This document shows positions 4,270 through 49,899 of a stretch of DNA of 64,000 bases, one piece after another. The DNA comes from Branchiostoma lanceolatum (taxonomy: Eukaryota; Chordata; Leptocardii; Amphioxiformes; Branchiostomatidae). The DNA is taken from assembly GCF_035083965.1 (NCBI RefSeq), contig NC_089732.1:16285424-16349423 (forward strand), in the 5' to 3' direction. The notes beneath the pieces are model-generated. The model did no database searches. It was not told the DNA's origin and saw only the letters and a program-made list of their open reading frames with translations. The first letter of the stretch is position 1. Each line of letters starts with the position of its first letter. Made by a program: the position numbers and the translations under genes.

Positions 4270-4692
4270 ATGGCGTCGTTGCAGCAGCAGGAGGCCTCAA
4301 GTTCGTACGAACCGGCTTTGACCGTGAACGTGAAACCGACGTCCAAGTCCAGGGCGGGTCGTGGGAAGGCGGTAGGTGAAACCGGGATGCACTTGAAGCT
4401 CCTCAAACTGGTTCTGTCCATGCTTCTCGGGTTAGTCGTGCTCGCCTGCCTCTCTCTGTCCCAACTCTCCGCGATCTCTCTGGTGAGAGATCTGCGTCCA
4501 CCTAAAGACAATGTCGAGAAATGCGAACCAGTTTCCTATTCGGACGGCAAACCTGACCGTGACCGTGACGTGGCCGCCCTGATGGTGGTGTACATGCTGA
4601 TGCTACCGTACGGAGTGTCATTGTTGAGGAGTCTGTGGAACGGCGCCTTCCAGGACTCTGTCCCGTGGCCGCACCCTAAAGCTTTTCTCGTG
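4270..4692 (+). CDS. chs: Chitin synthase exon 1 (start codon, residues 1-141)
   Basis: Begins at ATG 4270, the first ATG after an in-frame TAG at 4243. It encodes a basic cytosolic N-terminus and two predicted membrane helices (about residues 42-68 and 97-120), then [10 protein letters not shown]. It ends at GTG|gtaagt, phase 0. The next exon reads [12 protein letters not shown] in frame after a 9.7-kb intron. Confidence 0.9.
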
Positions 4693-13600: not shown

Positions 13601-16600
13601 TGTCGGTGTTCGCACGATTAGCACACGGAGTCTATTTGTTAACGGGTCCCGGGTTGATTTTAAGTACGAGTTAAAGTCCCTTCGGGGCCCTGCCGTGCCC
13701 CAAAATGAACCCGGTAGCCATAGGGTGGCCTTTTTTTAAATTTAGACTGAACTTAATGCACCGTCACGTTGCGCTTAAAAGAGATCTTGTGTATTTCCTT
13801 GGTGGTTAGCTTTGACAGTGCTAGCTGATAAACACCAAGCCTGGGCTATGTGAAATATTTGCACATTCTGAGGGTTATGTGGGCTTAGATGATTATGCTC
13901 CGTAGAAACTGCGGTTAAGGTGTACGTGTGTAAACATGGCTAAGGAATGGTAATTGTATCAAAATGACTACCGGCGGACTAGCAGCGTGACACAAATGCT
14001 CAACGACCTGCAGTGGCCCCTTCTCTCCGGAAGGAGGAGAAACATCCACCTCACCTTTTTCTACAAACTAGTTCACAAACATATTAACATACAGACTGAC
14101 AATTAGTACAACATTCTGAAACCTGCCCACGGGCGTTCCCGGGGGGGTCACCAACTAAGAAATCAAAATATCCACGCCCGTTCCGACGGATACAAATATT
14201 CATTCTTTCCACGTATAACACCTGAGTTTGTTTGTTTGTTTGTTTGTTTGTTTGTTTGAACCTTTGTTTATTCATGATAAGCTCAAATCGGCACGCAGGT
14301 CACTTTTCATTGAGGTCATGAGGGAAGAGGTAAGGGTCAGATGGAACGCCCTTCCTACCTTGTTTATCATATCATTAGGCAAACTAAATATCAACTTCTT
14401 TCCCCCCAGGGCGCCTTTCTCAGCATCTGTGAGGTTACCGGGCTGTGTGTGTTGACTCTGCGGGTGATGCCGTCCGTCACCCCCGCCCTAAGCGTGGTCC
14501 TCTCCAACGGTATTCTCTTCGTGTCCATTCTCAGTCAAACCATCAAACAGACGATCAGACTGTGGAAGCAGGAACAGAGACGAAATTGCCGACGTGTTTC
14601 TCGCCTTATTTCGTGTGTGGTCTGGGGTTTAAGTTGTGGAGGGCTTGTCGGCGTTTGGTGTCGTTTTAGAACACAGAGATATGTGATAGAAACGGTTGTC
14701 TCTTTGTTTCTTCTTTCCTTGGCCTGGGCTCCGAAGCTACAGGAGTTTCAGGCTCAAGGCGTTCAGTTAACCGAATCGTCGAAACCCGACCACGCGGCCA
14801 ACTCGAGATGGAAAGCGGGAATATTAAACAATTTCTTGAAACTAGTATCAGTCCTACTAATTCCAGAAGCAATGAAGCTTGCTGGACTCACGGATGTGTG
14901 TTCGAGCTGGGTGTGGATCCGAGCAGAACTGTATGCGCGCTTCACGATTCAGCACCCGGCTACGGTTAGCTTTGTCGTGAATGTTACCGCCAGTTTCGTG
15001 GGTTACATCTTAGCGTGGACGGCCTGTTCTGTCCGGATGGGTTTCTTCGGATTCGCGTTGCCGGCCTTTTTAAGCACCGTTGTTACAGGTACGTTATCTT
15101 GGTGTATAAATACTGTCTGGTGTTTCTTTACCTTTAAGTTAGCACTTTACTCTTTGACAAACAAACAAAAAAATCAACAGAGGAGCCACAATGGAAAGTC
15201 CCAAGTCCATTAGTTCTAAGCTCACAAGTTAGTTTTGATTTTGTTTAATAATGTAAACCGCTCATTATATATACATACGCTAAAATAGTAATGCTAGGGT
15301 CCGACCGGACTGTTTGAGAAAACAGAGAATAAAAATGCATATCAAGAACATACATAATTTACGGTGAGGAGCGATTCTTTAAAAGTTTGTTTATTTTGCT
15401 GTCTTTGATTATATCGTATTTTCCGTTACCGCAAGCTACCCGGCCGGGTCTCGCTTTGGAAATATGACCCTGGCATATCGCGTGAGATCCTTTTGTTGGT
15501 TTTGCGCATTTTTTGAATATGCCACATATCAACATGTATTTTCAGGTGCAATATTCACCAACCAAATCTGCACCACAACGCGCTTCATCCACGAGGACAC
15601 GTGTTTGATGTTTTTGAAAGAAGACTTCGTGTGGGATGTCGGGATCGGTCTGGGGCTGCTGCTGATCCAGTTCTTCACGACCACGTGGTTCGTCATGAGG
15701 AGTCCAACCATCGTCATGGAACATGAAGCCCAGGTAGAGTACGAAAACACGTCATCAGTAGACGAGCTCACACTTATGAGGAGCAAAGAAACTGCTTGCA
15801 TCATAATGAGGAGCACAGAAACGGCTTGCATTATAATGAGGAGCACAGAAACTGCTTGCATCATATAACAGCGGGACGTGCTTTATTTCAGCTAACATTC
15901 GAACTTATTCTAAGAACGTATTTTGCGATTACGTGGCCACATTCGAACGCGTTCGAATCAAGCATGCTTTTAAACTATTTGATACGCTCGAATGTGTCCG
16001 CTTAATCGCAAAATACGTTCTTATAACACATCGAATGTTGGCTTAATTGATTTACATCCCGCTGAATTGTGAAATCGTCTATTTTAGTCTTTACACCATA
16101 ATTAGTTACTCAAGCAACTGGATAAAAGTTTGAAAAAGTCAGACGTTTCAGACAGCATCTGCTGCCTTTCGTCAGTTACTAATAAAAGGACTGGGAAACC
16201 AGGTTTAAACCAAAAACTCTGAATAGATATGTTACTGAGGTTATGACAATTTAGGATGCCTTGGCATAGCTTTCAATAGAAGACTTAGTCAAGCAAAGAA
16301 TGTACAATCCCAACCTCAACAGGAAAAGAGGTCTACGTGTTGAACTTTCAGGCACTTGGGATAGTACACTCCCCTCACATACAGTCCCGGACGAAGAACA
16401 TTAGTTAGTGTACTAAAACAACAGTAGCTAATTGAACTATTTGCATACAACCTTGTCTTGACTTCTTCTTATCCAATCTTTCCCAGCTGTTCTGGCTGCC
16501 GGGGTACAACAGCGTGTTCCCGGCGCAGTGGCTGCTGCTGAGCCGGAAGAACAGGAACACGAAGGGCAGGGACTTCACCACGAGGAGGAAGACCAAACAA

Positions 16601-19600
16601 AACACGCACGTCTACATCTGCACCACTATGTACCACGAGGTTTGTTCAATTATGTTAAAAAGTTTGTTGTTTTCTTGGATGTTTTTCTCTTATCGAAATT
16701 TGGGCTGCACATCCACATGAGAGCTGCAGAGGAGGGCTGCATTCTCATTGGTCTTCGAAAGTAAAGAAACGGACATCATCATCATTGTAAATGGACTGTA
16801 CCGTGCCGTTATGTCAGGTTTAGGTCATAGTCTTTTAGACAGACAGACAGAGATACTGCTAAAAGCACATTGTGTATGACTGTATGTCTATATATATTTT
16901 TCTTTGAAATTTGAAATGTATAAGGCTCTAAAATCTTAGAGCGATGTCCTCATACCAAAAAATATGTATGATTTTGCCAAATGCATTCGAAGCTTTCAGA
17001 AGATCGAACTATACAAGAGCAAACTGAATGATAAAGAACGGGATAAAAGTAGTAACTATCATTTTTTTTAAATATAGAGAATAGAATTGACGTTACCGTT
17101 ACAAACGAGTCATGAATTTTATGCTGTTAAGTCCGAGCGTGAGATGGAGCAGCTCCTGACGTCATTACGTGCGCTAGCGGAGAGTCAAGTCGGAGAGCGG
17201 ACCTTCGAGTCCCACATCTTCTTTGACGGAGGGTGTCGACAGGGGCAGCCGTCTCAGTGGGCGCTTCAGCTGTTCAGTGTCATGGGGAGGACGCTTCAGG
17301 ATGAGAACGGTGGGGATGTTAAATATTGTAGTTAAGTCCCTTAACCCCCTCTCCACAAGTGTAACACTCCGCGCATGCGTACTTAGCCCTGCTTTATCTG
17401 GTGAGGAGACCATGCCTGAATAGACAAGTTTGATTGTACTCTGCGTGTCTGTGCAATCCTTTGTCATCTCGTGTTTTGAGTAAGTGGGAACCGAGACCGA
17501 TTAACAGGGGATACAAACGTCTTACTGACTTCTAATCTCGGTACCAATAGTGTATAGTTACAGTCTCCAGGACTAGGCTCTTTGCAGCATCTAGAACCAG
17601 GAAATTAATACTCAATACCACAAATGCATGATCTGTGTCATATTGTTAGAATCACAAGCCTTAGCATTCACAAGTACTTGCGTTGTATGTAGAATAAACC
17701 TATCAAAAGATCTATGAAAAATGATAAAACGTTCTGTTCTCGAAACCATTTCACCTCACTGACCCCTTTTTTGTGGACGTTGTATACGAAACGATACGCT
17801 TCGTTGAGTTCTTATGCAGTGGACGAGGAAGAAATCGTACAACAGTGCACCCGCTTTAAAACGCCTTACGTTAAGTCTAATGTATTTACGTTATGTTCTT
17901 AGACCCTGAAGACATCTTACAGCAGTGCACCTGCTTTAAGACGTCTTACGATAAGTCTAATGTACCTACGTTATGTTCTTAGACCCTGAAGACATCTTAC
18001 AGCAGTGCACCTGCTTTAAGACGTCTTACGATAAGTCTAATGTACCAACGTTATGTTCTTAGACCCTGAAGACATCTTACAGCAGTGCACCTGCTTTAAG
18101 ACGCCTTACGATAAGTCTAATGTACCTACGTTATGTTCTTAGACCCTGAAGACATCTTACAGCAGTGCACCTGCTTTAAGACGCCTTACGATAAGTCTAA
18201 TGTACCTACGTTATGTTCTTAGACCCTGAAGACATCTTACAGCAGTGCAGCCGGTGTAAGACTCCTTACGGGCTGCAGCTCCAGTGGAAACTGCACTACG
18301 GAAGCGGAGACGCTACCAGCGGGATGGACTTCACGGTTCATCTGAAGGACAACGTTCTGGTGAGTCTTCAGGTGTCGCCGAGACGTCTTTTACTCAAAAC
18401 GTCTTCACTGGCCTTTGGAACTGTATCATCCATTTCTTCTACGTAACTTTCCGCTTTTCAAATTAAGAAGCAGCTTGCCCTCGGCTGTCTTCCTCTCTGA
18501 TATTTTCTACATACTTTCTGATGTTTCGTCCCAACATATCGTATTCACATATAGGTGAAGAACAAGAAAAGATGGAGTCAAGTGATGTACATGTCTTATA
18601 CGCTGGATTACGCAGGTAAAGGGGAACTCTTGTTTATTTCATTTGCAATATTCGTTTCTCATTTATCAGACGAAATCCGTAATTCGTCGGGAGTCCTTTA
18701 ATTAAAACCCTAGTCCTGCTACGCCCGGCAATTGCCGGGTTGTACATTATTGTTCTGTATGCTAGCCCAGACAATTGCAGGGTTGGGAATATTTCTACAA
18801 TGCGCTAGTTGCACCCGCGCGGTTGTTGTACAGCGTGGTAACTGAAATTGAGCAATATCAAACGAGTACCCTTTCTTTCAAATTTTTCTGCACACTTCAG
18901 CAGTGGGGGTATATTTTTGCTCTGGAACTCCAGCAGGACAAGGGTTAATTATATTCGATGTGACTCAGTGCAAGCAGAAAGCGGAACTCATCTTTGAACA
19001 TCAAACTGTTATTTCTTAAGCAGCGCTAGCGTTATTAAAAGTTGAACTAAAATTTCCAGCACAAAAAGGAAAAAAATAAAATAAGATTGGACTTACCCCA
19101 TATCCAGTCTTTGTCACTGAGTGAGCAATCCGCCACTTCTGTAACAGTTACCGTCATGCAGATAGAACATGTGACTCGGTGATGAGCAGAAACTTATGAT
19201 GAACTGCTCACCGTGTCAACTTTGCTTTCGAATGATTTTCACTAACACGGATGATCTTTCCAGCTAAGTCGTCTTATGTCATTCACTAATTTTCAGCATA
19301 TTTCCATCCCCTGGGAATGGCGTCCGGAGTGATCGCAGACACGGACGTCCGTGCCACGTCTACGTACGGTACCGACGCGTCGCACGGGCCGCACCAGGCG
19401 AGGCTCAACGCCGTGGGGAACGGGGGCAGCACGGCCGGCTGGACGGCGGGGGATTCCGACATACACCAGGTGAACTAGATTGTTAATGTCTCAACACCTG
19501 TATTTCCCTACATCCAAAGCTATCTGCCACCGACAGATCGAGCTCATAGAACGTCCGGAACAAAATATACAAAAGCTGCAGTACCAAGGTAACACACCAG

Positions 19601-22600
19601 GGGGACCAAAATCATCGTTGACCTTCGTCTTCCCAAGATCTACCCCCATATAAAAATCATTACTATCTATCTAGAGGTTCTTACATTATGCTGACTACGG
19701 ATATCTGGAAACACAAGCAGATACATGGAGGTAATGATTGCCTTTGTCCAGTCGTTGCAGACATGGTTGTGACTGGAGTTGTGACTAAAATGTGGACTGT
19801 TTGAAATACATTTCTAAAAGCGTTCTTATGGTAGAAATCTCACTTATTGATAAACGATTTTTTGCCTTTGTCCAGTCGTTGCAGATCGACCTGGGAGAAG
19901 ACATGGTTGTGACGGGAGTAGTGACTCAAGGGAAGCACGGGTGTGAGGAGTGGGTGACTATGTACCGCCTGTCCTACAGTCGGGACAGCGAGTCTTGGGA
20001 GAGCTACAGGGACAAACACAACAAACCGGTGGTAGGTTTATCATAAATATGATGGTTTCCCTTTATCATGTATTCCAACAAAGTGTTTGATAACAAAAGG
20101 AAATTTATAGAATGGATTTTGGAGTGAAATCCAAATACAAAAAAAAATATTGGTTTCGAATACGTCATGGGGAACACAGTTTCACACGCAGCGATACCAT
20201 TCCAAGAATCAAGGCTCTCACAGTGAGACCGTCATACGTATAGCGCTATCTTTGCGAGTATCAGGGCTTGCAGTTTGACCTGCAAATCCCCACAACGTCT
20301 TTATTTGGGTAATCAGGGATTTAGCACATGACCTTTAAAGATTGACATTTGCGATCAAGAATTACCTTTTGAATGACACGGCTGCTTTTTGATATATATT
20401 AAAATCTCTAAAAGATGTTATAGTAACTACCAGTATACCTACTAGTAGGAAGGTCAATGAGAGGATGTTCCTGATGCTCCAAATAACGTCACTTTATATA
20501 GAAAAAGTTTTTGAAATGGATTTAACTTCACTTACATACACAGAAAGAGTACACAGAAATAAATCACCAGCAAATTACCACCGCTCTATCATTGCTTATG
20601 TCCTTATGTACATTCAATTTGAACGTGTCCCATATACAGTGTTGTCATTGCGACAATCAGGTACTGCTCACCGGTGCACCACTGAGTACTTCTTATAAAC
20701 GGCGTTAAATTATTGCAAACATCAGGGATCTCAACTCTTTTGAATAACCGTTCCAGGCATTAGACGGTAACGTCGACAGCGACACCCCCGTCCAGCACAT
20801 TCTGGACACGCCAATCAGAGCACGGTACATCAGATTCAACCCTGTCAGCTGGAAAGACAGGATCAGCATGAGAGTGGAACTGCTGGGGTATTGTAAAACG
20901 GGTACGTACTGGAAGCTATTACCATGCACGACAGTCTTGCTCATCATAATAAGACTTCATCAGTAATGCATGTGAATGTACGTCAATATTAAAGGAAACT
21001 TTTTGTGTGCTTTGACTGATTTTCTTAACCGGAGAGAGAAACAGAGACAAAATCAATCCAAGCGATAGTGTTGATAATTGAAAAAAAAGCCTCAAAGTCA
21101 CATTTGACCAACGACAAAAGAGATTGGCCAGTCATCAAACTAGGATTAAACAAGCTGTATTTGAGTGGGACCAATAGTCAAACTTTTAACATGGTACTGA
21201 ACAGCCCGCATGCACGGTTTTTCATTTATAATGTCCCAAACATTCAAACATGCAAACGAACAAACAAACAAGAATATCTTACTGTACAAGCTTCCTCTTC
21301 GATTCAGACGTTAAGTCTTCATCAACATAGCTTGTCGCTTTTTCTCTCCACCCAGTCCAGTGCATGTTCGTTGGCTTCTCGAAGGTCAGTGTCTGTGCAG
21401 GTAGGTGAAAGTCTGTAGCTGTACATCTGCAGCTGACGTTAAGTAAAGTACATTTTCTCTTCCATTTTAGACCTGGACCGAGACAGCTACATCCTGGCCA
21501 CAGACGCCGACGTCAAGTTCTCCCCACAGTCTGCTAAGGCCCTGATGGAGATAATGAGTACGGACCCTAGCGTCGGTGCCGTGTGCGCCCGGACTCACCC
21601 CCTGGGGTCGGGGCCCTTGGTCTGGTACCAGATGTTTGACTACGCGATTGGGCACTGGTTCCAAAAGGTGAGGAAAGAAGAACCTGTACTCAAGCCTACA
21701 GAGGGTATATCTTTTAAGTTCGCTGAAATTAAACGTTGTCCAACTTGCCGATGCACGTGCTGTTTGATAAGTAGACATGTGCTGGCGTTTACGCTGACCG
21801 TGACCCTAAGTTGTATACTGTGGAAGCCCACTTCATGAAGCTCCACGTATTTTATATATTACTTTATTCATATGTAACGCCATTATTTGTTAGCCTCCAC
21901 CAGGCCCTCCTACGGGCGTATTAATTGATCAGAAAAAGGAATAATTAGCCAGTAGAGTCAGTCCACGGTGAAGATCACATTGATCCTGTAAAGCCCAGGT
22001 TAAGCCTAGGTTACACATAGCCGAACATAGCTCCCGAACGCTAGCCGACTCAGGTCGGCGGTAGTTCGGGAGCATTCTGACCAGTTTTTGGGCCACGCCT
22101 ATCTTTGGTGCCGAACATGCGCCGAAGATGCGCCGATCATCTCCTAACCAGTACACGAATTACTCCCGAATGGGCCCCGAATGCTTTCTAGCTTACTCCC
22201 AACCTATGCTGACCTCTAACCGCAGACTGCCGAATCTCTCCTGACTAAACCCCGACCGAATGCAGACCCTCTCACGAATTTAAATGGACATATTCAGCGA
22301 CTTTCAAAGAGGGGTCATTTTCGTTTTTAATTGAAATAATCCATTCTATTATGTTGTTAACATTATCGAGAGATCGAATTCGGATCATGGCTAGCTTTAA
22401 TACTGCTTTCAGTGTTCTTCTTTGTTTTTGGTCGTGTGAAGGTCGGGGGTGATTCGCCCACGTTCCGATAGTAGTCACTTGGTTGAGAATGAGTTAGCAG
22501 AGTTTTGTCTACGGCCTTGGGGTGAGTTATGGGTAGGTTGGAAACTAGTTGGGAGTAAGTCAGTAGTGTTTTTGGCGTGGTTAAGGTTCTAATTTTACTA

Positions 22601-25600
22601 CTGACTCAATCCCGAATACCAGCCGAGCACTAGCCGACCGCGCCGAACACCAGCCGAACACCAGCCGACCCATTTCAGACCCTCCGTCCAGAGCCGAATG
22701 TTTTGAAAATTTCACCAGCCGAACACCAGCCGATTCAGCCGAACGCCAGCCGACTCGACCGAACGCCAACCAAGCTAGCTCCCGAATCACTCCCGAATCA
22801 CTCTAACCATGGTCGGGGGAGAGTCGGGAGGCCATGTTCGGCTGTGTGTAACCTAGGCTTTACACATAGCCGAACATGGCCTCCCGACTCTCCCCCTGCC
22901 ATGGTCAGAGTGATTCGGGAGTGATGCGGGAGCTAGGTCGGCTGGCGTTCGGCTGAGTCGGGTGGTGTTTGGCTGAGTCGGCGGGTGTTCGGCTGCGCCA
23001 GCCGAATGTTTTGAAAATTTGAAAATATTCGGCTCTGGACGGAGGGTCTGAAATAGGACGGCTGGTGTTCGGCTAGTGTTCGGCGCGGTCGGCTAGTGTT
23101 TGGCTGGTATTCGGGAGTGAGTCAGAAGTAAAATTGGAACCTTATTCACGCCAGAAACACTACTGACGTACTCCCGACTAGTTTCCAACCTACCCATAAC
23201 TCACCCCAATGCCGTAAACAAATCTCTGATAACTAATTCTCAACCAAGTGACTACTATATATATATCGGAACGTGGGCGAATCACCCCCGACCTTCACAC
23301 GACTAAAAACAAAGAAGAACACTGAAAGCAGTATTAAAGCTAGCCATGATCCGAATTCGATCTCTCGATAATGTTAACAACATAATAGAATGGATTATTT
23401 CAATTAAAAACGAAAATGACCCCTCTTTTAAAAGTCGCTGAATATGTCCATTTCAATTCGTGAGAGGGTCTGCATTCGGTCGGGGATTAGTCAGGAGAGA
23501 TTCGGCAGTCTGCGGCTAGAGGTCGGGATGGTTGGGAGTAGGCTAGAAAGCATTCGGGGCTCATTCGGGAGTAATTCGTGTACTGGTTAGGAGATGATCG
23601 GCGCATGTTCGGGGCCAAAGATAGGCGTGGCCCAAAAGCTGGTCAGACTGCTCCCGAACTTCAGCCGACCTGAGTCGGCTGGTGTTCGGGAGCCATGTTC
23701 GGCTATGTGTAACCTGGGCTTAAATGAAACCCTGGCAAATATTCTCCCTATAGCCGGCGTAGTTAGCTGGTAGACACTAAATATTTGTCAGCACCAACTT
23801 AAAATAACACCAAACATATGCTGTTGATACAGCAAACGGCGAAAATCAGTTATTCTGTTTTTCGTGTATAACATCTTTTGTTTTTGGCTCCCCAGGTCGC
23901 TAACAGTGTTCTGGGTACGGTGCTGTGCTGTCCCGGCTGCTTTAGTGTGTACAGGTGTAAGGCTGTCAGGGACACTCTGGCCACATACGCCTCTACAGTC
24001 AGTAAAGGGGAGGAGTTCCTCACTAAAGATATGGGAGAGGACCGCTGGCTGTGTACGCTCATGGTAAGACATTTTTTTACTGTTTTTTTTTCTCTACTTT
24101 ATACAGTCAAACCTGCCGAAGAAGACCACTAAGGGGACTGATAAGATCAAGTCTATATGGACAAAGGGTTATTGTATAGTTTTACGTGATTGTGTAAATA
24201 GGAAACGTATCTGAGACACAACTCGAAGGTGGTGATATGTTTTACAATTTCCACATTATATTCGGCACCGGGATTTCTTTGTTCTACTCATGGCTATAAT
24301 ACCTTCCATATCTCGTTCCAAGCTCTCAACACCGCTTGAGGGCTTTAACATGTCGACATTAGGTAAAACCAAGGGACACGAAATTACATACGAATGCCAT
24401 TTGATTCTCCAGGTAGAGAAGGGCTGGCGGTTGGAGTACACGGCTGTGTCAGAGGACAGCACCTACTGCCCGGAGGAGTTTGACGAGTTCTTCAACCAGA
24501 GGCGGCGGTGGATCCCTTCAACTATCGCTAATCAGCTGGAACTCATCAGGAAGTGGGGAGGGGGGCAAGTCAAAAGCGACTACGTCTCCAAGTTCTTCAT
24601 CATGTACCAGGGCTTCCTGCTGTTTTCATCCATGATTGGCCCGTCGACTGTTATCCTGATCATGGCTGGTAAGGAAGATTCCATATTGTAAGTGGCGAAG
24701 TGCAACGTGCTACGATGCCCTGCTGGTTGTCATATTGAATATGAAACGTTTATTCAAAAATCTGTTATGACAAGATCGGTGATAAACAACGATGATTGTA
24801 CATTGGTAGATAACTGGACTGGTCATCTTTCTGCTATTGTACGATTAAGCCCTAAATGTAATTATTAGAAGGTAATACGAGCACAATGTGCCGGAAAATC
24901 TCACATTTGTCTCAGAAATACTTTGATAGATTGATTTAAAGGGTCTTCAAGATTCTAAATGGACTTTCAGACTTTAACTTAGCTGGTGCCTTTGTCTCTC
25001 CTCCAAATACTCTACATTTTGTACCTTTTTCAGAAACGATGAAACGTTGAATTAGCTTGGGCGTCATCCTCCGTAAAAATCAAACAGCTGACTCAATCTT
25101 TTTGCTTGCTGATCACCGAAATATTGAGCCAGTGATTACTACGGAAGATGGCACGCCGGCTAACATAGAATTGCAGATCTGGTGGAAAAACTGTTACGAA
25201 GTATAGAATGACTGAATGGAAATGGCTCATGTTGATTTCAGCCGGCCTGGAGTTGGTGGTGGGCAGTGTAGGAGGAGGAATCGTGCCGACAGTTGTTGTG
25301 TTCTCTCTGATCTTCCTCGGGTACGGAGTGCTGTGCCTTTACGCCAAGCAAGACACACAGCTCAAGGTATTTTCAATTACAACATCTTCTTACATTTTCA
25401 TGTAAGATTAAACTGTTATCATCATAATGATCATAACTCATCATCGCCATGACCTTAGTTACGCCTCGTACTCTTATATTAGTTTGTAAATTTACAGTAA
25501 GGTTTTGTAACACATTGTAAATCCTCTTGCAGTGGGCGAATGTACTTACCGTGGTATCTATGATAGTGTGATATAGGTATATATGACATCAATGTAGGTA

Positions 25601-28600
25601 TACTAGACATCCATGATGTATAATGTACATAGGTGTCTAGTCTTCGTCAAGTCTTTACCATCCAGTTGCAGTGGGCGAAGGTGCTGACGATGGTGTTTAT
25701 GGTTATGATGGTGATACCAATTGGTATAATGAATTATGTACATGGATATCTAATGTTCATCGACGTATGGTCTTCACAATTGTGTTACAGTGGGCGAAGA
25801 TGCTGGCGATGGTGGTTATGGCAATGATGGGGATACTCATAAATAGAATGTACTAGTAGTATATACATTGCCGTATAATCTTTATTGACATATGATCTAC
25901 ACCATCCTGTTGCAGTGGGCGAAGGTGCTGACGATGGTGTTTATGGTTGTCATGGTGATGGTACTGATCGGGCAGGCGTGAGAGATGGTGATGGCCTTCC
26001 AAAGGCTGAACGCCCGGTTGACCCAGCAGAACGCCAACCACATCACGGACGCTCAGAAAAGTACGTTCTGCAATAATGCAGATGTGGTCACTGCGATTTA
26101 AGATTGCAGTTAATTGACAGCACTAGATGCAGCATTTACTGATTAGTAGAGTTTTAGAGATGCACACGCACGTGGACATGCATGTGTACGTAGACCATGC
26201 ACTACATTCATCAACTGTGTCTAGATGTGAACTGTACTTTGTCAGAGCTGCCCAGAGCAATGGAGGATAGGGATGGATGGAGGAGAATGGTCATGAGCAT
26301 CCACGAGACTGTCACGACTAGATCAGATGTGAGGTTTAGAGATTGCAATGCCTTTCATTAATTCAATCCAAGATTATCTGACATGCTTTTGTTGCATGAT
26401 TCCAATAATGGTTCTATACTCAGTCTGTATGTGTTGTCGCGAATGACTGTAACCCTTTTAGTGTATGGACATATAGACAAAATTATTCTAATAAATTGGG
26501 AAAAAATCATCACAAATTATCTCAACAGAATTGTAATATGTAGACGATGTTGTTTCATATGTCTATTTATTTCCTATAGGTTGCCTTGACTGTCTATCTA
26601 CTGGCTGTGGTGACTGCAAAACGTTAACATGCGACGGGCCTCTCAACTGGTCAAAGGATAACGTCTCGACATGGTTGATGGACTGTTTTGGCCCAGATGA
26701 CCAGTTTTGTAACATATCCGGCCACTTTACGCAATACAGGTGAGCACAAAATTCTAAATACATTAATCTTAATCAAGACATATGTGTAAATGGTTTATTT
26801 CAAAATTACAAAAAATGCACAAAAGTGGCAGCCAACAGGCTGAATTGTTAAAGTTTTGAGCTTTGATCCAACACAAAGAAGGAACTCACCATGAATTTTC
26901 GGTCTTGCTGTGTTAAAATCCGCACACAAAAATTAAACAATTAAGAGATGATTTATACAGCACAATAAGTTTGATTTACCCTGATCTAACTTATTGCAAT
27001 ATCATATGGGCTAGCACGTACACCACATCCATCAAACCTCTTTACCTCCGTCAAAAGCGCTTCGTACGAATTGCAGCCAATACCTCATTCACAGCACACA
27101 CAGCAGCTCTGTTTCAAGATTTAAATGTAATGACTGTTTTTGACATCAGTAAATTTCAAATTGCCTTATTTGTCCATAAAGTTGTCTATAATAGCTCTTG
27201 CCTACCTCAACAATACAAAAGTATTTTCAACTTTAACTCAGATTTTCGGCACGACTATACAAGACAACATAATATTGTAAGACCAATTATGACAAAATCT
27301 AGTCAAAAACAACATACAATAATGTTTAGAGGCCCCACCATATGGAACAATCTAAGCCAAATTCAACAGCCTTGTTCGTCATTACCCAGTTTCAAAAAAC
27401 TTCTTAAGATGGATGTCATAGAACATCCAAGCATTACTTTCTCCCGATTTGTTTGTTTTCCTTGTTTTCCTTTGATATTTGATAATAATTCATATGATTA
27501 TTATTTTTGTATAATTTTGATCTATTTCTTGATAAATTGTAAACTATGTTTAACATTGATCATGTATAGCATAATCACACTTATTATGTTAACAACTCAA
27601 AATTCATTTCTCCTTCATTTGTTTCATTAGGATTTATGGTATTATTTCCGTTTTTTTATTGTTGATTTTGCTTAGTGTCGATTATGTACAATTTAAAAAA
27701 TTCATATTGACTAGTTTCGAGGGAATGCCCATTAAAATCCACTTAGGCTTTTGGCCCCTCTGCATGTCTTTTGCCCTGTTTATCTTTGATTTTAGATATT
27801 TCTATATATTCGAATAAACAATAAACAAATACTCAAGTTGACCTTAAAACCATTGTCTCTGGGCGAACTAATTTTTAGAACTCAAAGGTGGCCATTACAT
27901 GTTTGGTTGGCGGAAACAACGCTGTTTTGGGGGAAGTCAGTCCTCTCATGCTCAATTTATTCCTTTATTTTTAACATGAATCATGATTATGAACATTCAA
28001 TCGATCTCAAATCGCGTGAATCTGTGTTAAACACTGTTTTCAATCTTGTCGCGCCTTTAATAGTGGTTTCCAGCTGTCTCTGTTTGACGAACAAACGCTC
28101 TGTGACGTGTTCGCGATGCAAAACGGAGACCCTTCCAAGGAGAGGGACTGTAAACTCATCTTCAGAGAGTTCGCCAAGCTCAGAGATGAAAACGGTGAAC
28201 TGTTTTCAACAATATTTTTCTCATTCGTCAGATATGAGGAACTCAGAATGCATGTATAGTATGTCACTATGGTCATGAAATACTATTATTTATAAAGACA
28301 CTCACTATTTTTAGTAACCCAACGACATGTAAAACTGCAGTGCTTCAACAGCATACATGGCAAAGTTCTCTCAATGACTCTAGACGCAGCTGAATGGCCC
28401 CCACACAAGATGTTGAAGAAATTGGCTTTTATTCATCGTCAAAAGCTGGAACTGTTGATTGCCACATCATTCAATTAAGGCAAAGGATAAGAGAGGTTAC
28501 GCCAAAAATAGTTACTCAAGCAACTGGATAAATGTTTTTGAAACAGTCAGACGGTTTAGACAGCACCCTCTATCGTTCGTCAGTGACTGACGAAAGATAG

Positions 28601-31600
28601 CGGATTCAGTCACTGACGAAAGATAGCGGATGCTGTCTGAAACGTCTGACTTTCAAAAGTTTATCCAGTTGCTTGAGTAACTATTTGTGGCGCATCTTAT
28701 TCCCTGGATGTCTAACCTTTATCAACGTGATCAGAGTGCTTGTTTGACAAATGTATGTAGAGATTGCATCAGATGTTGTATTGTTTGTTGCCTCTCCAGC
28801 TGCGGTAACAAGCACACCGCCGCCGACGATTCTGGACCAGCTGCCCCTGCCGATGAGCGTCATCTACTTTCTCAGCCTGGCGGCTCTGTACCTCCTCACG
28901 GCCCTGCTGCATCCGTCAGAGTTCCACAAACTTCTGTACGGGTTCGTGTACCTGCTGAGTTTGCCGTCTGGGTACATCCTGATGACTATCTACAGCGTCT
29001 GCAACATGACGGATCGATCATGGGGTAAGTTTTCCTGTTGTTGTTAGTTCATGTGGTAAGTTTCCCTTTTGTTGTTAGTTCATGACCCTGCTGTACGGGT
29101 TCGTGTACCTGCTGAGTTTACCGTCTGGGTACATCCTGATGACCATCTACAGCGTCTGCAACATGACGGATAGATCATGGGGTAAGTTTTCCTGTTAACG
29201 TTGTTGTTAGTTCATGTGGTAAGTTTCCCTTTTGTTGTTAGTTCATGACCCTGCTGTACGGGTTCGTGTACCTGCTGAGTTTACCGTCTGGGTACATCCT
29301 GATGACCATCTACAGCGTCTGCAACATGACGGATAGATCATGGGGTAAGTTTTCCTGTTGTTGTTAGTTCCTGGTGTAAGTTTCCCTTTTGTTGTTAGTT
29401 CATGACCCTGGTGTATGGTTTCATGTACCTACTGAGTCTGCCGCCTGGATGACCATCTACAGCGTCTCCAACGTGCCGGACAGGTCCTGGGGTAAGGACA
29501 TATCATGAGTGAAACATTTGATGTAACAATTACTCATCGAAATGCAACTGGATAGATTGTGTAATATGTCAGACGTTTCAGCTAGCATCCACTTCCTTTG
29601 ATCTTGATAAAGTGTTTACCAAATATTTCAAGCTGTTTGTAACTGCTATCTTGTTTATCTCAATACCTGAATTTCTAACCTTTCATGTAATATTGTTGTA
29701 CGCATCAATATTGATTATTATGTCATGCCTGGACCTGATACGGGTGTTCCGGACCGTGTAATAAGTATCCGTATCACATAAGGTTCTAGAGTTGTATCAT
29801 ACGGGCTTCCATAGAATATTTCAAATGCATTTCGAGTGCGCCGGTTGCGCCGCCGTCGAAGATTCGAATACTGGGTTCGGTGGTTGGAATCAATGTTGTT
29901 ACAGTTTTGTGTTCGAGGACACCAAAATCCCTCAACTTTTGGCGCATTGCGCATTGAAATGTGTGTTTTCTCGGGTGGGTATGACATATAGCACAACACG
30001 GTGTATTCCGCATCACCCTCGGTCCCAGCCCTCCCGCGGGTCGGATCGCCCTGAGGCCTACGGCCGTCGGGCGATCCGACCCGCTGTCGGGCTGGGACCT
30101 CGGGTGATACGAAATACCCTGTGCTGTATTCCATATTTATGGATTTTACAGGCTGCAAACGTTTTAAGCGTGCTCGATGGAAGAATTGACCGTTCGAGCT
30201 AGCTCGAAGAATTGAACGTTCGAGCTCGGTGGCAACATCGAACTTTCCAACTCGATGGAAATATTCCTATTTGGATGTCAGTGTGTTTGCAGTGGGTTAT
30301 AGTAAACAGTCGTGTAATCAACAACGGTTGGTCCTAAGTAGTATACTTTTTCCTTCGGTTAACATAACTGTTATTCAGTTTTGCCTTTCAAAGCCCGTTT
30401 TGTATTTTCTTTTCAGGTACACGAGAAATAAAAGTGCCAGGTGTTGCCGGCGTTGGAGGTAAAAGTGTCATCGAGGTTATCTCCAACTTATGCAGAACTC
30501 TGTGCAGGTCAGTGTTGTAGAGCCGAGAAAAATACTTAGATATTCACGTGGCAGAAGTTAAACAGTAATCCTGATACTTGTTGATACAATGATACAATGT
30601 TGATTGGTGGCAAAAATACAGTTGATATTCTAAGGGAGGCTATGGTTTTTCTGTGAATGTGTTTGTACTACTCCTGTATAAGTTGTCCTGGTTATTTCTT
30701 GGTTTTGTTGTGCCCTATGTATATCGATCTTCCGTGTATTTATTTGAATTTCTTATTTCCTTAAAAAAAGAAGGGAAAACAAACAAACAAACAAACAAAC
30801 AAACAGTAATCCTTAACTGATCCATTTTAACTTCCCAACAAAGCTGTTGCCGGCAAGAAGACACTAAGCAGCCGTCGGTGGAAAAGATTTCCAACGATGA
30901 CGTCGACGATGAGGAGACTGACGAGAGTGAAAGTGGATCAGAAGACGAGCAGAGTGAGAGCCGATCGCTACTAGGTAAGAAATATCATAATATTTCTGGT
31001 ACGACATTTTGACATATATATACATGTACACATTCCGATATTCTTTAGGCCTGAATTGATCCTTAATCGTTCAGTGGTGGGTAGAACAACATGAGCCTGC
31101 AATGTCCCCATGGATTTGGCTAAACGCACCAAGTCACCCCTGCTCTAGCTCTATCCAATTCTCAAAGGTTTAATGCCAACCATAAGCGGGACCAAAGGTT
31201 CCAAATTGACGATCTGATCTATGTATATTGCACCATTAAAGACCCCAGTAAAACTATATGAATACAGGATAATGTAAACTATAGGCTTCAGTATGCGCCT
31301 GGCAGCCGTACAGTGCACATCAGTGGAGGCCTGGCTGAGAAAGTTTACCATGTACAAGTTACTCTTCAAGTCATGTTTGAAATCTATAGATAACATATAA
31401 GACTTTGAAGTATGGCTACACATAAAAAAGTTAGCTTGAAGGACAGTTAGCCAAGAAATAAAGTAATGACAACACTAGCTTGCAATTTAGCTTTGAGACA
31501 TTGGCTAGCAGTTATACGTACTGTTCTACAGAGCCCTATTCTATGCTGGTAACAACAACAAGAAGACGCAAAAAATCCCAAGTCATATTTCTAGACACAC

Positions 31601-34600
31601 AACTACCTAGGCTAATGTTGGGAAGACATTGGAAATCTATATCCATTTAGACACTCTAACACAACGTTGACAGGGTCGATTTGAAAGTTTGAACATTTCA
31701 ACAAGGTTGACTTCCCCCAAACTGAAAGTTGTAGATAACATTGTCTTGATTATCCAATCTGATTGAAACTTCCTTGGATTATGTGACTTTTTGATACATA
31801 TCTGGGCCATTCTGCATTGTTTGATACTGTTCATAGAAAAACCAGTACAGAAAAAAAGTTTGAATTCTCTGACAGTTATTATGGTAATCTGTCCCTGCTA
31901 TTGTCCCAGGCTGGCAGACATCTAATCCTTTTATGAATTTATGTGGTTATGGGGGATTAATCCAGCCCTCAACCTGCTGGGCAGCTCACAGTAGGAGCAC
32001 TCCCTTTACAACTTCCCCAGGGCAAGGTTTTGGTTCCTTTAAGTATTACCATTTCTTTAAATCACTGTCGTGATATTGGCGCATATCATGAATCCATTAT
32101 CGTTAACGTGGGCATTTATTTTTTGATGGACAAGACCAATCAAAAATAGTAATGACCATACGGTAATTGTTGACCCTTAAGATAAAGGGTACTCCAAACA
32201 ATAAACGACTTTTATTTATTTATTGGTTCAGCATGTAACGTTGGGTAACATAAATTCGCGGGGTACTTAAATTCGCCATTTTTAGAAAAGGTGTATTCTA
32301 GGGATATGTGCTAGTTGCAAAATCAGTTATAACGCCAGCAATGCGAACCGAATAGACTAACGTATTCAGAACACTGACTGAAAAGCTTCGATAACCATGT
32401 ATTAGAAGTTGGCGACGTCAAAAACTTTCCGTCCCTTACTTAGTGAGTCTGGGGGCTTCTTGGGAGAATCACACTACACTGTTGTTCGCTGGTTTGTAAG
32501 ATAAATGTCACACCCGCTTCCTGCTAAACACAATTATTTACAATACAACTTATTACAATCTATTTTGCTAACCTGCAACTGGATTCTTAGTAAGTGTGAT
32601 CAATCATCAAAACCCCTCTTTGTTGCTACAACCTACGGCACGTGTATTTTCCCGCCGCCATATAATTACCCAAAATCCTGTTGTCAAGCAGACGACAAAG
32701 GTTTGTGAGGAACACTTTTTTGTCTAATTGTTGCGTGTGATAGTGGACTGAGGACAATATTTTCCTCAAAGTTTGCTCCTAACACAACAAGGAACACATG
32801 GACATAGTAGTATTACCATTGCTACGGCATCCAGCTAACTTCCCATGAATAATGTACACGTTTCCATGACGGTGGATGTCGACTTTAAATGACGTTCTAC
32901 CGACTCAACACACGGGTTGTTCCCGAAGGCCTGATGTGTGCGGTACGGCCGTTTTTTCGTGTATTTTTTTTTTACTTGGACACGTCTATATCCATAGCAC
33001 TCTCCTCAAGCCAAGGATGGAACGAATAGCTGCTGTATAAAATGTAATTAGCGGTAAGATATTCAAGACGAATTTTCTCTTCCGAAATAATGTTCACACC
33101 TGTCCGACAACACCGTCATTGTGCGTGCGGCGGACGGTAGTTTCAAGTTGAAATATTATGGTGTCAGCACGACTAGAGACAAAATCTACCACATATTTCA
33201 AAGATAGTACATGATACTGAGAGAATAATACTAATAGAAAAAAAGGATGGTTTATTGTTCTGCTAGATTGATTTCTGTCAACCATTATCGGAAAAATGGC
33301 GAATTTATTTTACCCAACGTTACATGACAGGGTTGCCCGACTAGCCGGAGGCTATTACTAAGGGCGAACCCATGTGCGGCCTTAGGACTGTAGGTTTTGA
33401 ACCACTCACACCGGGAAGGACCCCTACTCTTTTCGACAAGTGCAGTGGGTTCTTTAACGTGCTCGAGGTGTGGCTCTCTTCCACACGGGACCTCCATCTA
33501 ATGTCCTATCCGAGATAAACCACTCTACTTGGCTTAGACGTTTTGTTTCTTTTCTCACAAAAGGTGACGTGAAACCAGCTTCTGCAAACAAGAGCAATCT
33601 GTGGGGCGGGTCAGGTAAAGGCTCGGTCAGTGGGCACCGGTCATCAACACACGGGACACAGCGGGGACACCGTATGTTTGCCAGAAGTGGTAGCCACCAG
33701 TTGATACACAACGTGAGCGATTTTCTCCCAAGCCAATGGCCGGACGAACTAAGGGTAAGGTCAATATGAAAATAATAGATAATGAATGAATGAAGACCTT
33801 TATTGCATGTTCGTGCCCCGAGGGGCTTGATACATGTCAAACCTAACTAACATCTAAGTGACATATACAGTGAAATATGTACAGTACATTGTGTAAACAT
33901 ACATGGTAGAAGAAAGTGATTATACAACATTAATAATGAAAAATTAGTAATAAATGATAAATGAATAATAAACAATATAAATTATATAAGTAGCTCTAAT
34001 ATAAGTTATATGAATTATATAGATGATATAAATAGTATAAATGCTACGACTGATATAAATGATATATTTGATATAACAAATACAATTAGTGTCATTGATG
34101 CAATCAAAATAATTCATAAACAACTGCTTGATTTTCTCATATTTACAGGCCTACTCGTATCTTATTGAAATCCCTGAAAGTTTTGTATACTTCTAATATT
34201 GTTATTGACACTGTCGCATATATTTAACGTCGGACTTTACCATCTTTGTTCCAGCAAAAGTACGAGAAAAAGTTCAGGGAACACGGTTACGAAAACACGT
34301 CGTTCATTTTTGAGGTGACGAACAAGGTTTGTGAACCGATACTTGATCTATTATTCTCCTCAACATGTTGTCTTGGGTTTCAAGTCCTCTGTTCATGTGT
34401 TGAATCAACACAGGAACAGAGGACATGAACCCCAAGAGAACATGTTGTTTGTGGGAGCTTGTTTCACGTGGTATCTAACCAGCACTAGTGCGTCTCTATC
34501 AATAAGATCACTCCCGATAAAAACCACTAGTGCTGGTCAGATACCAGATGTAATTTACTATGAAGTGAAGAAGAGAAATTCAGAAGAGTGTTGTCGGTCA

Positions 34601-37600
34601 AGATTAATGTTCGCATGATGCATAAACTGTAAACAAACTGTAAATACTTTGAATAGGTTTTTAAATGTATTTTGTCTGTATATGACATATGCATTCAGTT
34701 ACAACCTGTGTACGTGTAATATCGTATAAGCTGCAATAAATACCTGTAACAATTATAACTGTGGATATACAATACATGCTTTTATTTAGTCATATCTTTG
34801 TATTTTATTGCAAAAAAATGTCATGCTGCACCATTGACAGCCTTTCGAGTTACATACACATACACACAAAGCCCGCTGCAGTACCGACGGAAAATGCCAG
34901 GGGAACCATTTTTAAACTTAACCTTCTTTCTCACAACCGCTACACCTCTACCAAAAATCATGAAGATCCATCAACGTTTCCGTCACTTTTTTTGCCTACA
35001 TACAAACACACAAAAATGCAAAGTCCACTGCGGTAATCTTGGGAAATGACAGGTGAACCATTTTTGACCTTGACCTTCCTTTGCACAACCACTACACACC
35101 TACCGAAAATTATGAAGATCCATCAAAGGTTTCTCGAGTTATGCTCTTGACATACATACAGACCCACCCAATAGCTGGAGCAACCGAAAATATAATCTTC
35201 GCGGCGAAGATAATAAACCAGTGTACAAAACTGACCAAATTCATGTTGAATGCTAGGATCTTGAGGCTATTGGCATCACCAAAAAGCTGCATCAAAACGT
35301 TCTAATGAAGGAAATAAAGAAACTCCCGGAGTCTGAGCTTGATGACACCATCCCGGTAAGGCCATGTACTTTCAATTCATACTGTTTTTACAGCGTTGGA
35401 CATACCACCATCGTTAAACGACTCAGAGATAGAACCACGCAATCCCAATGATGTTGCTGTGTACGAGGGGCTATCAATAAGTCCTCAGCCCCACCCAGAA
35501 ATATGGTGCTCAACTCAAAAAGCCTTTTATCAATGTCTACCAAAATTCAAATTATTGTGATCATTGCTTTGCAGGTGATACCCAGTAACATTAAGTGAGG
35601 TAGAAGGATAAAGACATGGACACTTGAGCTGCTGAAAGTCAGATACCCACTTTTTGTAGTTGAAATAAGAAGGGAATGTTCATCAAACATTTTGAGAATG
35701 TCTTCGAAGATTTTATGCCGATTCATGGCATGAGGAACTCGACCCACACAGCTCTGATCACAGTTCAACCTTGACCACAATAATTTGAAACTTGGTGGAT
35801 ATTGTTCAAAGACGTTATACTACATAATTATTTCCCGAAATGTGACTTGAGCACCTTATTTCTGGGTGAGGCCGAGGACTTATTGATCACCCCTCCTATA
35901 TGTCAGGGTAATATCGCGACCGGTGTTTTTGTCAACAAAGATCTTGATCAGGATCTCTGCCCGTAAAATCGGTGATTCTACCAGACTAAATATTATCATC
36001 GATTCTAACAATAGAAACCCCGAACGGAGATTGTTATCGTTATTTTTACCGCTAAAGCGCAAGAATCATTGATTGGGCCAAATAGCGATCTCTAAAATTT
36101 CATACATATATATGTATGAAGTGTCTCGCAGACGGAGATCAGTTTTGTTTTATTTGCCCCAGGAAAACTGTCGCCAGTGGCTAGAGTCTATCGGCATGGA
36201 AGAGTACATCAACAGTTTCGAAACGTATGGCATCATCTCCAAGGATCACCTGGCCAGTCTTAAGTCCACGGACGTGAATGATCTGCTGAAAGAGCTGAAG
36301 ATAACAAAAATGGGTACGTTATCATAGATTTACAGATGTATAGTATATAAGGGTTCATGACCAGTCCCGATATGTTTGCGCTGACTTTGATCCTGACCAG
36401 TGACGTATAATCAACAAGCCGCTAGGGGGTCCAAACTTACACAACTTCCTTCCTGCTACAAGAGCTATCCATCATTCCAAAATCAAGACCACAGCACATC
36501 CAGAACTTGAACTCCAAAATTTTAAAGTCCGTTGCAGTACCGTAGGTAGTTGCTGGGAGGCCCATTTTCGAACTTACCTTTTTTCTTTACAACATTAACT
36601 TTCCTACTAAAAATCATAAACATCAGTTCATGGCATCGACAGTTATACCGCGAACACCATCACTCCACAAATCCCGACCAAAAATATACCCTTCTGCCTA
36701 CGGCGAAGGCAACAAATAAACCACTGAATGAGCGACATAGGGAGAGAAGTGTGTCCTCCCCATCATTCTTACATATCTGTTCGTTATTGATGACTATCAA
36801 TGCACGGCTTTCTTCTTCTGATTCATGGATATGACGTCATAGCCAACAAAAATAAAGGCTTGTGATTTGTCTACACACCCTGGCTATGTGATGATTTATC
36901 AAAGCAAAAATTATCCAATTTGTATGATTATAAATTTAAGTCTGGATAACGTCAAGAAAGAAATACATGTAGTCTATCCCGTCTGAAGGCTTTGAATAAA
37001 ATGTATTTTGCGATGGTTTTCTGTTAATACCTCACATCTTGACATTATGATTCAATTTGTATGATTATAAATTTAAGTTTGGATACTGTCAAGAAAAGAA
37101 ATATTCTTTCCCGTCTGAACGGTCTAAATAAAATGTCTTACGTTGATTTTCCAGGTAATACCTCATATCTTGAATTTGTATGTATTGTTTCTCAACCCAG
37201 CTCATATCAAGAGGATCACGAATGCAATCAAGAAGATGAAGAGCCCAGAAGAAAGTATGTCCTGTTTCTCTTAGAACTTGAAGTGCATTAAGCTACTATT
37301 ATTAAGTTTTCGGCTCATTAGTACCGCGCACCTTTTTAGTTAACTTGTCGACGATGTTTGACAAATTTTTGGACAGTTATCCGGCATTGGTTACGATGCG
37401 TCATGCAAATATGCTGAGACTCCATACAAACAATGTAATTAATGGGAACCGGTTTTGGATTTTGAGATTTCGTGCAATTAACAGAAGTGTTCGTTAATCC
37501 GTTATGTAATCAGCTGGCTTCTACTGTAAATGCTATTTTCAATGTATTCCATAATCATATCTTGAAAGATTATACGGCAGCTGTCTTTCTTTCTTTCTTT

Positions 37601-49400: not shown

Positions 49401-49899
49401 GTAAGTATATTGGTAATCATGCTGTTGTTTCAGTGTTGTATAGGTAGTGTAAGGGGCGCTGCCACATTCGGCATCCCCAGGGCAGTATTTGCTGTTGTAC
49501 TGCTCCTGGCTGTACTCCCGCGACCTGTTGTTGTACCGAAATGGAACAAGATCGATAGCAAAGTAAGTGCTGAAACAGGTGACTGGACGTTATTGGATTC
49601 AACAAACATTAGAAAGATCAACTATGGACAAAATGGGCTGAAGCTTGTTGCGCCATCACCCTCCCGAAGTGGTAGGACCCAACGAACTCTAAACACACTC
49701 TCCTGCCTGGCTCTACTGCTATCCGGTGACATCTAAACCAACCCAGGACCCAGGGCCTAGAGACCCTCTTGTGGACACTGCCTCCGAGATGTAGGTAACG
49801 GCACTAATACTAGTTATGTATCATGTAATACCTGCAGCGTCACTGTCGATGATAATGCACCTTCTCATAAAAAGTCTCACATAATCTCTGATTCACCTG

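What the first reader, a model, noticed from the sequence alone, without database searches (positions are those of the whole stretch)
19297..20901. F5/8C (discoidin) domain inserted inside the chitin synthase catalytic core
Exons 8-10 encode a full discoidin domain between RWSQVMYM (exon 7) and the D-A-D strand (exon 11), two motifs normally joined by a short loop. The three exons total 465 nt and have phase 1 introns at both ends, the classical form of a shuffled module. All GT2 motifs on both sides remain in frame. Discoidin domains are usually extracellular, while the GT2 core is cytosolic. The domain has lost the first of the two Cys that usually form its disulfide, as expected in the cytosol. 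It may bind phosphatidylserine on the inner leaflet or gate the active site (inference). I do not recall this architecture being described, but could not search.
Basis: partly seen in the sequence, partly recalled or inferred. Interest (0 to 1): 0.93.

Follow-up and report, generated by a model that had tools for sequence, protein, structure and literature searches.

The report
Discoidin domain inside amphioxus chitin synthase
In the European amphioxus, a gene for a chitin-making enzyme carries a discoidin domain, a module best known from blood-clotting and cell-surface proteins, spliced into the middle of the sugar-transferring part; most amphioxus relatives examined share it, its presence in amphioxus enzymes was likely reported already in 2012, and it likely serves as a docking site inside the cell.

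Summary
Exons 8-10 (474 nt, not 465; phase 1 at both ends) encode a discoidin domain (Pfam F5/8 C, E 2e-25) between KRWSQVMYM and the DAD strand of a chitin synthase. NCBI model P0001 (Branchiostoma lanceolatum) is identical to the joined window exons 1-14 and includes it. So do relatives in three species and two hybrids: 23 of 25 amphioxus proteins examined, two decayed. The other 101 listed hits carry no Pfam discoidin match. AlphaFold2 predicts an intact discoidin fold on an intact GT2 core. Both terminal cysteines, not one, are lost in 22 of 22 domains read. A tree without the domain's columns puts the two domain-less amphioxus enzymes inside the domain-bearing set: likely one gain, then decay and loss. 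Phosphatidylserine binding is weakly disfavoured for this gene, open for paralogues whose first spike keeps hydrophobic residues. A cytosolic docking role is likeliest but untested. Novelty is reduced: Guerriero 2012 (title seen, text not held, abstract recalled) reported discoidin and SAM domains in nine B. floridae chitin synthases. The place inside the catalytic core, the cysteine loss and the gain-loss history may be unreported; I could not check.

The parts
4270..4692 (+). Exon 1 of the chitin synthase gene (P0001 residues 1-141)
14410..15088 (+). Exon 2, N-terminal membrane region
15546..15733 (+). Exon 3
16487..16639 (+). Exon 4, start of GT2 core ([10 protein letters not shown])
17132..17309 (+). 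Exon 5, GT2 core
   Evidence: start refined; identical to P0001
18223..18359 (+). Exon 6, GT2 core; last of five tandem copies of its acceptor
18555..18615 (+). Exon 7, holds [17 protein letters not shown], ends phase 1
19297..19469 (+). Exon 8, discoidin domain part 1 (phase 1 to 0)
   Evidence: Pfam; P0001
19876..20031 (+).
   Evidence: P0001 and relatives have SLQ, RLQ or YLQ here
20757..20901 (+). Exon 10, discoidin domain part 3 (phase 0 to 1)
21471..21667 (+). Exon 11, strand with the DAD motif of the GT2 core
23896..24063 (+). Exon 12, GT2 core (GEDRW)
24413..24668 (+). Exon 13, QRRRW motif and next membrane helix
25242..25366 (+). Exon 14, membrane helix
25916..26062 (+). Exon 15, third tandem copy; in-frame TGA at 25979-25981
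26582..38606 (+). C-terminal exons (last membrane helices, SAM-type region) by tblastn match to P0003, P0006 and P0018; not modelled exon by exon
   Evidence: SAM domain of P0003 by Pfam

Best explanation
An amphioxus chitin synthase gene carries a discoidin domain inside its GT2 core, between the KRWSQVMYM helix and the DAD strand, and the domain likely serves as a docking module facing the cytosol rather than as a part of catalysis. Shown: the exons, the frame, the domain match, the presence in 23 of 25 amphioxus relatives examined, and the loss of both terminal cysteines. Predicted: the discoidin fold stands intact on an intact GT2 fold. Inferred from the tree: one gain in the ancestor of these amphioxus enzymes, then decay in one pair of paralogues and loss in another. 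Inferred from general GT-A topology: the loop before the DAD strand lies at the edge of the sheet away from the catalytic pocket. The two ends of a discoidin domain meet at its base (recalled), so the core would hold them together in place of the lost disulfide, and the three spikes would point into the cytosol. Inferred and untested: the spikes bind a protein partner or a neighbouring enzyme, working like the SAM domains at the other end of related enzymes.
Against: No partner, ligand, transcript or expression was tested. The spikes vary between paralogues, which suits divergent partners but suits drift equally well; hydrophobic residues in spike 1 of 11 of 18 domains leave lipid binding open. 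Decay and loss in one lineage show that the module is dispensable there. The docking role rests on analogy. The window copy itself may be truncated by an in-frame TGA.
Confidence: 0.42

Rival explanations
1. The domain was a chance insertion that the loop tolerates; it folds but has no selected role and is decaying.
For: Faster change than the core, a decayed copy in P0015/P0094, complete absence in P0017/P0018, variable spikes.
Against: Kept in frame in most paralogues of three species, with the fold supported by profile and prediction. A neutral 158-codon insert beside the DAD strand should have been lost or broken more often. No codon-level test was possible.
Confidence: 0.22
2. The domain binds acidic lipid of the inner leaflet (phosphatidylserine) and anchors or orients the enzyme.
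For: Best structural matches include lactadherin C2 and factor V/VIII C2 domains, known lipid binders. 11 of 18 amphioxus domains have F, I, L or M in spike 1, for example LFM in P0011. The Trp of the FVIII Trp2313-His2315 segment (named in a PDB title) has a counterpart in most amphioxus domains, as in non-lipid discoidin domains.
Against: In the window's gene and its four nearest aligned relatives spike 1 has no such residue; the spike-1 Trp of 12 of 13 canonical domains is absent in 18 of 18; spike 3 is 8 residues in 15 of 18 against 10 in factor V/VIII, though 6 of the 7 sea-star and coral domains have 7 or 8 too. GT-A topology suggests that the insert hangs away from the pocket and membrane (inference). 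Odds raised from 0.15 to 0.18 after the count.
Confidence: 0.18
3. The domain is an allosteric gate: a ligand on its spikes moves the helix before it or the DAD strand after it and so switches catalysis.
For: It is joined directly to the KRWSQVMYM helix and to the strand that carries the metal/UDP-binding DAD.
Against: Absence in P0017/P0018 leaves the core motifs unchanged; no ligand known.
Confidence: 0.12
4. Exons 8-10 are skipped in the working mRNA, or belong to a minor isoform, and the enzyme is ordinary.
For: The skip would keep the frame. No transcript data were available here.
Against: Database gene models with the domain in three species and two hybrids, divergent paralogues keep it open, and none of the 25 amphioxus proteins examined joins exon 7 straight to exon 11.
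Confidence: 0.06

Closest known systems
Amphioxus chitin synthases with discoidin and SAM domains (Guerriero 2012, Genomics Proteomics Bioinformatics 10:197; PMC4937987, not held)
   Same: Same genus, same enzyme family, discoidin and SAM domains (abstract recalled: nine of twelve B. floridae genes). B. floridae relatives P0003, P0007, P0008 and P0014 carry PF00754 with the chitin synthase domain.
   Different: Whether that paper places the domain inside the GT2 core, or notes the cysteine loss and the gain-loss history, could not be checked. In Pfam scans the Chitin_synth_2 match starts only after the insert (profile position about 200 of 527), so the domain can look as if it preceded the catalytic domain.
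Metazoan type I chitin synthases (Zakrzewski et al. 2014, PMC3942024)
   Same: GT2 motifs and, in most members, C-terminal SAM domains; two Branchiostoma enzymes of Guerriero 2012 are placed there (passages).
   Different: Non-amphioxus relatives have a short linker where the domain sits (95 of 101 listed). The figure legends seen list Cyt-b5, DEK, MMD, SAM and IQ domains, and the word discoidin does not occur in the main text.
Lactadherin C2, factor V/VIII C2, neuropilin b1 discoidin domains
   Different: Those are extracellular with a terminal disulfide (recalled); the amphioxus inserts lack both Cys and the spike-1 Trp.
Lophotrochozoan myosin-fused chitin synthases (PMC3942024, abstract and passages)
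   Same: A cytosolic interaction module added to an animal chitin synthase.
   Different: Myosin is fused at the N-terminus, not inserted into the catalytic core.

Membership tests
Metazoan type I chitin synthase | GT2 core motifs ([21 protein letters not shown]) | tested here: met
   Most of these residues are invariant or nearly so among 58 aligned sequences; Chitin_synth_2 E 1.7e-27
Metazoan type I chitin synthase | C-terminal SAM domains | tested here: inconclusive
   The window has exons matching the SAM region of P0003/P0006, but an in-frame TGA at 25979-25981 precedes them, and the window's own SAM exons were not scanned with Pfam
Metazoan type I chitin synthase | Groups with type I enzymes in a tree | tested here: inconclusive
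   Amphioxus proteins form one clade beside cnidarian and mollusc enzymes; no type II enzyme was placed as outgroup
F5/8 type C (discoidin) domain | Pfam PF00754 above its curated cut-off | tested here: met
   89.7 bits against 28.2
F5/8 type C (discoidin) domain | Discoidin beta-sandwich fold | tested here: met
Disulfide-bonded extracellular subclass of discoidin domains | Cys at both ends of the domain | tested here: not met
   0 of 22 at either place
Phosphatidylserine-binding C2-type discoidin domains | Hydrophobic residues at the tips of spikes 1 and 3 | tested here: inconclusive
   Spike 1 of this gene and four near relatives has no F, I, L, M or W; 11 of 18 amphioxus domains have one; no Trp in 18 of 18. 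Which residues bind membrane is recalled
Phosphatidylserine-binding C2-type discoidin domains | Binding to PS vesicles | not testable with these tools
   needs purified protein
Amphioxus discoidin-SAM chitin synthases (Guerriero 2012) | Discoidin domain in an amphioxus chitin synthase | tested here: met
   the paper itself was not read

The most novel reading that the evidence does not exclude
Amphioxus turned an extracellular adhesion module into a cytosolic control arm grafted between a core helix and the metal-binding strand of a processive sugar polymerase. Ligand or partner binding on its spikes tunes chitin synthesis, and paralogues with intact, decayed and lost arms form a natural series of switchable and unswitched enzymes.
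Probability: 0.12. Interest if true: 0.8.

Novelty: new member of a known kind. Interest (0 to 1): 0.48.

Why it matters
It is a clear case of a whole domain accepted inside the catalytic core of a membrane glycosyltransferase, with the core motifs kept. It is also an unusual discoidin domain, expected on the cytosolic side and stripped of its disulfide. Paralogues with intact, decayed and absent domains in one genus make the effect of the insertion directly testable. For annotation it matters too: several of these chitin synthases are named MFGE8, EDIL3 or CASKIN2 in a public B. lanceolatum gene set, apparently because of the discoidin and SAM domains.

Tried and rejected
Whole-genome search for the window: none held. 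The key paper, Guerriero 2012, is not held under DOI or PMC number. Searches for chitin synthase or chitin with discoidin, amphioxus, Branchiostoma, cephalochordate, SAM or Guerriero listed no held paper whose title or shown abstract start describes the domain in a chitin synthase. Of the papers I saw the abstract and passages of PMC3942024 and passages of PMC5122149, PMC6109156 and PMC10216261; the rest as listings.

Rejected: skipped-exon artefact, against the models of several species. Rejected: Nucella lapillus P0036 as a second case; its long linker is a low-complexity repeat. Considered: separate gains in amphioxus paralogues; same site, same start (PLGM shortly after DY) and same end make one gain simpler, but the tree does not strictly exclude two. 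The tree is rooted at the midpoint for drawing and has no type II outgroup; the loss reading assumes that the root lies outside the amphioxus clade.

P0017/P0018 could be gene models that missed the exons. Rows left out of the tree: amphioxus P0005, P0006, P0008, P0122, P0124 (5 of 25), and 72 of the 101 other hits. P0005 was left out of the cysteine count; P0006, P0009, P0014 and P0122, whose models look faulty inside the domain, were kept. The alignment with canonical domains used 18 of the 23 domain-bearing proteins. AlphaFold2 was run once, with 58 rows; a second fold, for which the alignment was made, was not run.
Full report
What is there. The window carries one chitin synthase gene on the + strand, from 4270 to at least 38.6 kb (tblastn). 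A model of 14 joined exons, 1013 residues, is identical to the first 1013 residues of NCBI protein P0001 (chitin synthase chs-2-like isoform X1, Branchiostoma lanceolatum, 1064 residues). P0001 is very likely the model of this locus. Exons 8-10 (19297-19469, 19876-20031, 20757-20901) encode a discoidin domain: Pfam PF00754, 89.7 bits against a cut-off of 28.2, E 2.2e-25. The closest solved structures by sequence are factor VIII, factor V, neuropilin and lactadherin domains. The introns are GT-AG, phase 1 at the outer edges of the module and phase 0 inside it. The module is therefore 474 nt.

Where it sits. It lies between KRWSQVMYM and the DAD strand. In 120 listed hits this linker could be read in 115: 97 short (7-40 residues) and 18 long. 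The 18 are 17 amphioxus enzymes and one snail model with a low-complexity stretch. Of the 19 amphioxus proteins among the 120, P0017 and P0018 have short linkers of 29 and 37 residues. Six more amphioxus proteins with the domain appeared, making 23 of 25 amphioxus proteins examined with the domain; two of the 23, P0015 and P0094, have a decayed one. None of the other 101 listed hits carries PF00754 in its Pfam column. A search from the P0003 domain returned 12 proteins, all amphioxus chitin synthases. A search from the P0010 domain returned 36: P0010 itself and 35 discoidin proteins without a chitin synthase domain, namely factor V, neuropilin-2, a coral and a sea-star protein. That search missed the other amphioxus enzymes, so its reach is short.

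Cysteines and spikes. 0 of 22 amphioxus domains keep Cys at either canonical end, while 13 of 13 canonical domains aligned have the last one. This fits a reducing cytosol, and also a domain whose two ends are already held by the core. The spike-1 Trp present in 12 of 13 canonical domains is absent from 18 of 18 amphioxus domains; this gene and its four nearest aligned relatives have no F, I, L, M or W there at all, but 11 of 18 amphioxus domains have at least one such residue. Spike 3 is 8 residues in 15 of 18, against 10 in the factor V and VIII domains; 6 of 7 sea-star and coral domains have 7 or 8 too. Membrane insertion is therefore weakly disfavoured for this gene and open for paralogues such as P0011.

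History. A tree from the core alone (49 rows, 379 columns, domain left out) puts all 20 amphioxus rows in one clade (100/99). The two domain-less rows P0017/P0018 group with P0015/P0094 (100/98), inside the domain-bearing set. Forcing the domain-bearing rows together is rejected (log-likelihood 26.0 lower, p-AU 0.0114). A quicker tree of 55 rows gave the same grouping. P0015 shows no PF00754 match at E 0.001, yet its insert matches a profile of canonical domains over nearly the full length (E 1.3e-9). The simplest history is one gain, decay in one branch and loss in another. Caveats: P0017/P0018 are predicted models, and the tree has no type II outgroup. Between eight close pairs the domain is 82-90% identical while the core parts are 91-100%.

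Is it new? [quoted passage not shown] I recall its abstract as reporting a discoidin and a SAM domain in nine proteins; the text is not held. Zakrzewski 2014 does not use the word discoidin in its main text. I therefore file the gene as a new member of a known kind. The exact place in the core, the loss of both cysteines and the gain-loss history may be unreported, but I could not verify that.

Mechanism. I commit to a cytosolic docking module (inferred, about 0.42), by analogy with the SAM domains of related enzymes, against neutral passenger (0.22), lipid anchor (0.18) and allosteric gate (0.12). What is shown is the architecture, its spread and the cysteine loss; what is predicted is the fold; what is inferred is the side of the membrane, the spike direction and the function.

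The window copy may be impaired: the exon copy that fits the relatives carries an in-frame TGA at 25979-25981, and P0001 ends in another tandem copy of that exon. The domain's meaning therefore rests on the family, not on this copy alone.

Noticed in passing
window 25979-25981: In-frame TGA in the third tandem copy of the membrane-helix exon, where P0003 and P0006 continue open; NCBI model P0001 ends in the first copy instead. The allele in the window may make a truncated enzyme.
   Followed up: partly
window 17828-18270: 80-bp tandem repeat, 5.5 copies, with five copies of the exon 6 acceptor and exon start; the four upstream ones run into a stop after 26 codons, only the last is open.
   Followed up: yes
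window 25672, 25791, 25916 and 28934-29448: Two further exons exist in tandem copies: the membrane-helix exon three times and a 157-bp unit with the [30 protein letters not shown] exon 3.2 times.
   Followed up: partly
window 22000-23723: Large palindrome in intron 11, arms 82-99% complementary, possibly a foldback transposon.
   Followed up: no
window 49761-52669: Probable retrotransposon remnant: a reverse transcriptase ORF at 51427-52107 (Pfam RVT_1, E 2.2e-29) between ORFs without a Pfam match.
   Followed up: no
P0006, P0124, P0025, P0015: Chitin synthases named MFGE8, EDIL3 or CASKIN2 in a public B. lanceolatum gene set, apparently after their discoidin or SAM domains.
   Followed up: no
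P0094 (B. belcheri): Two consecutive decayed discoidin units in the same insert; may be a chimeric gene model.
   Followed up: partly
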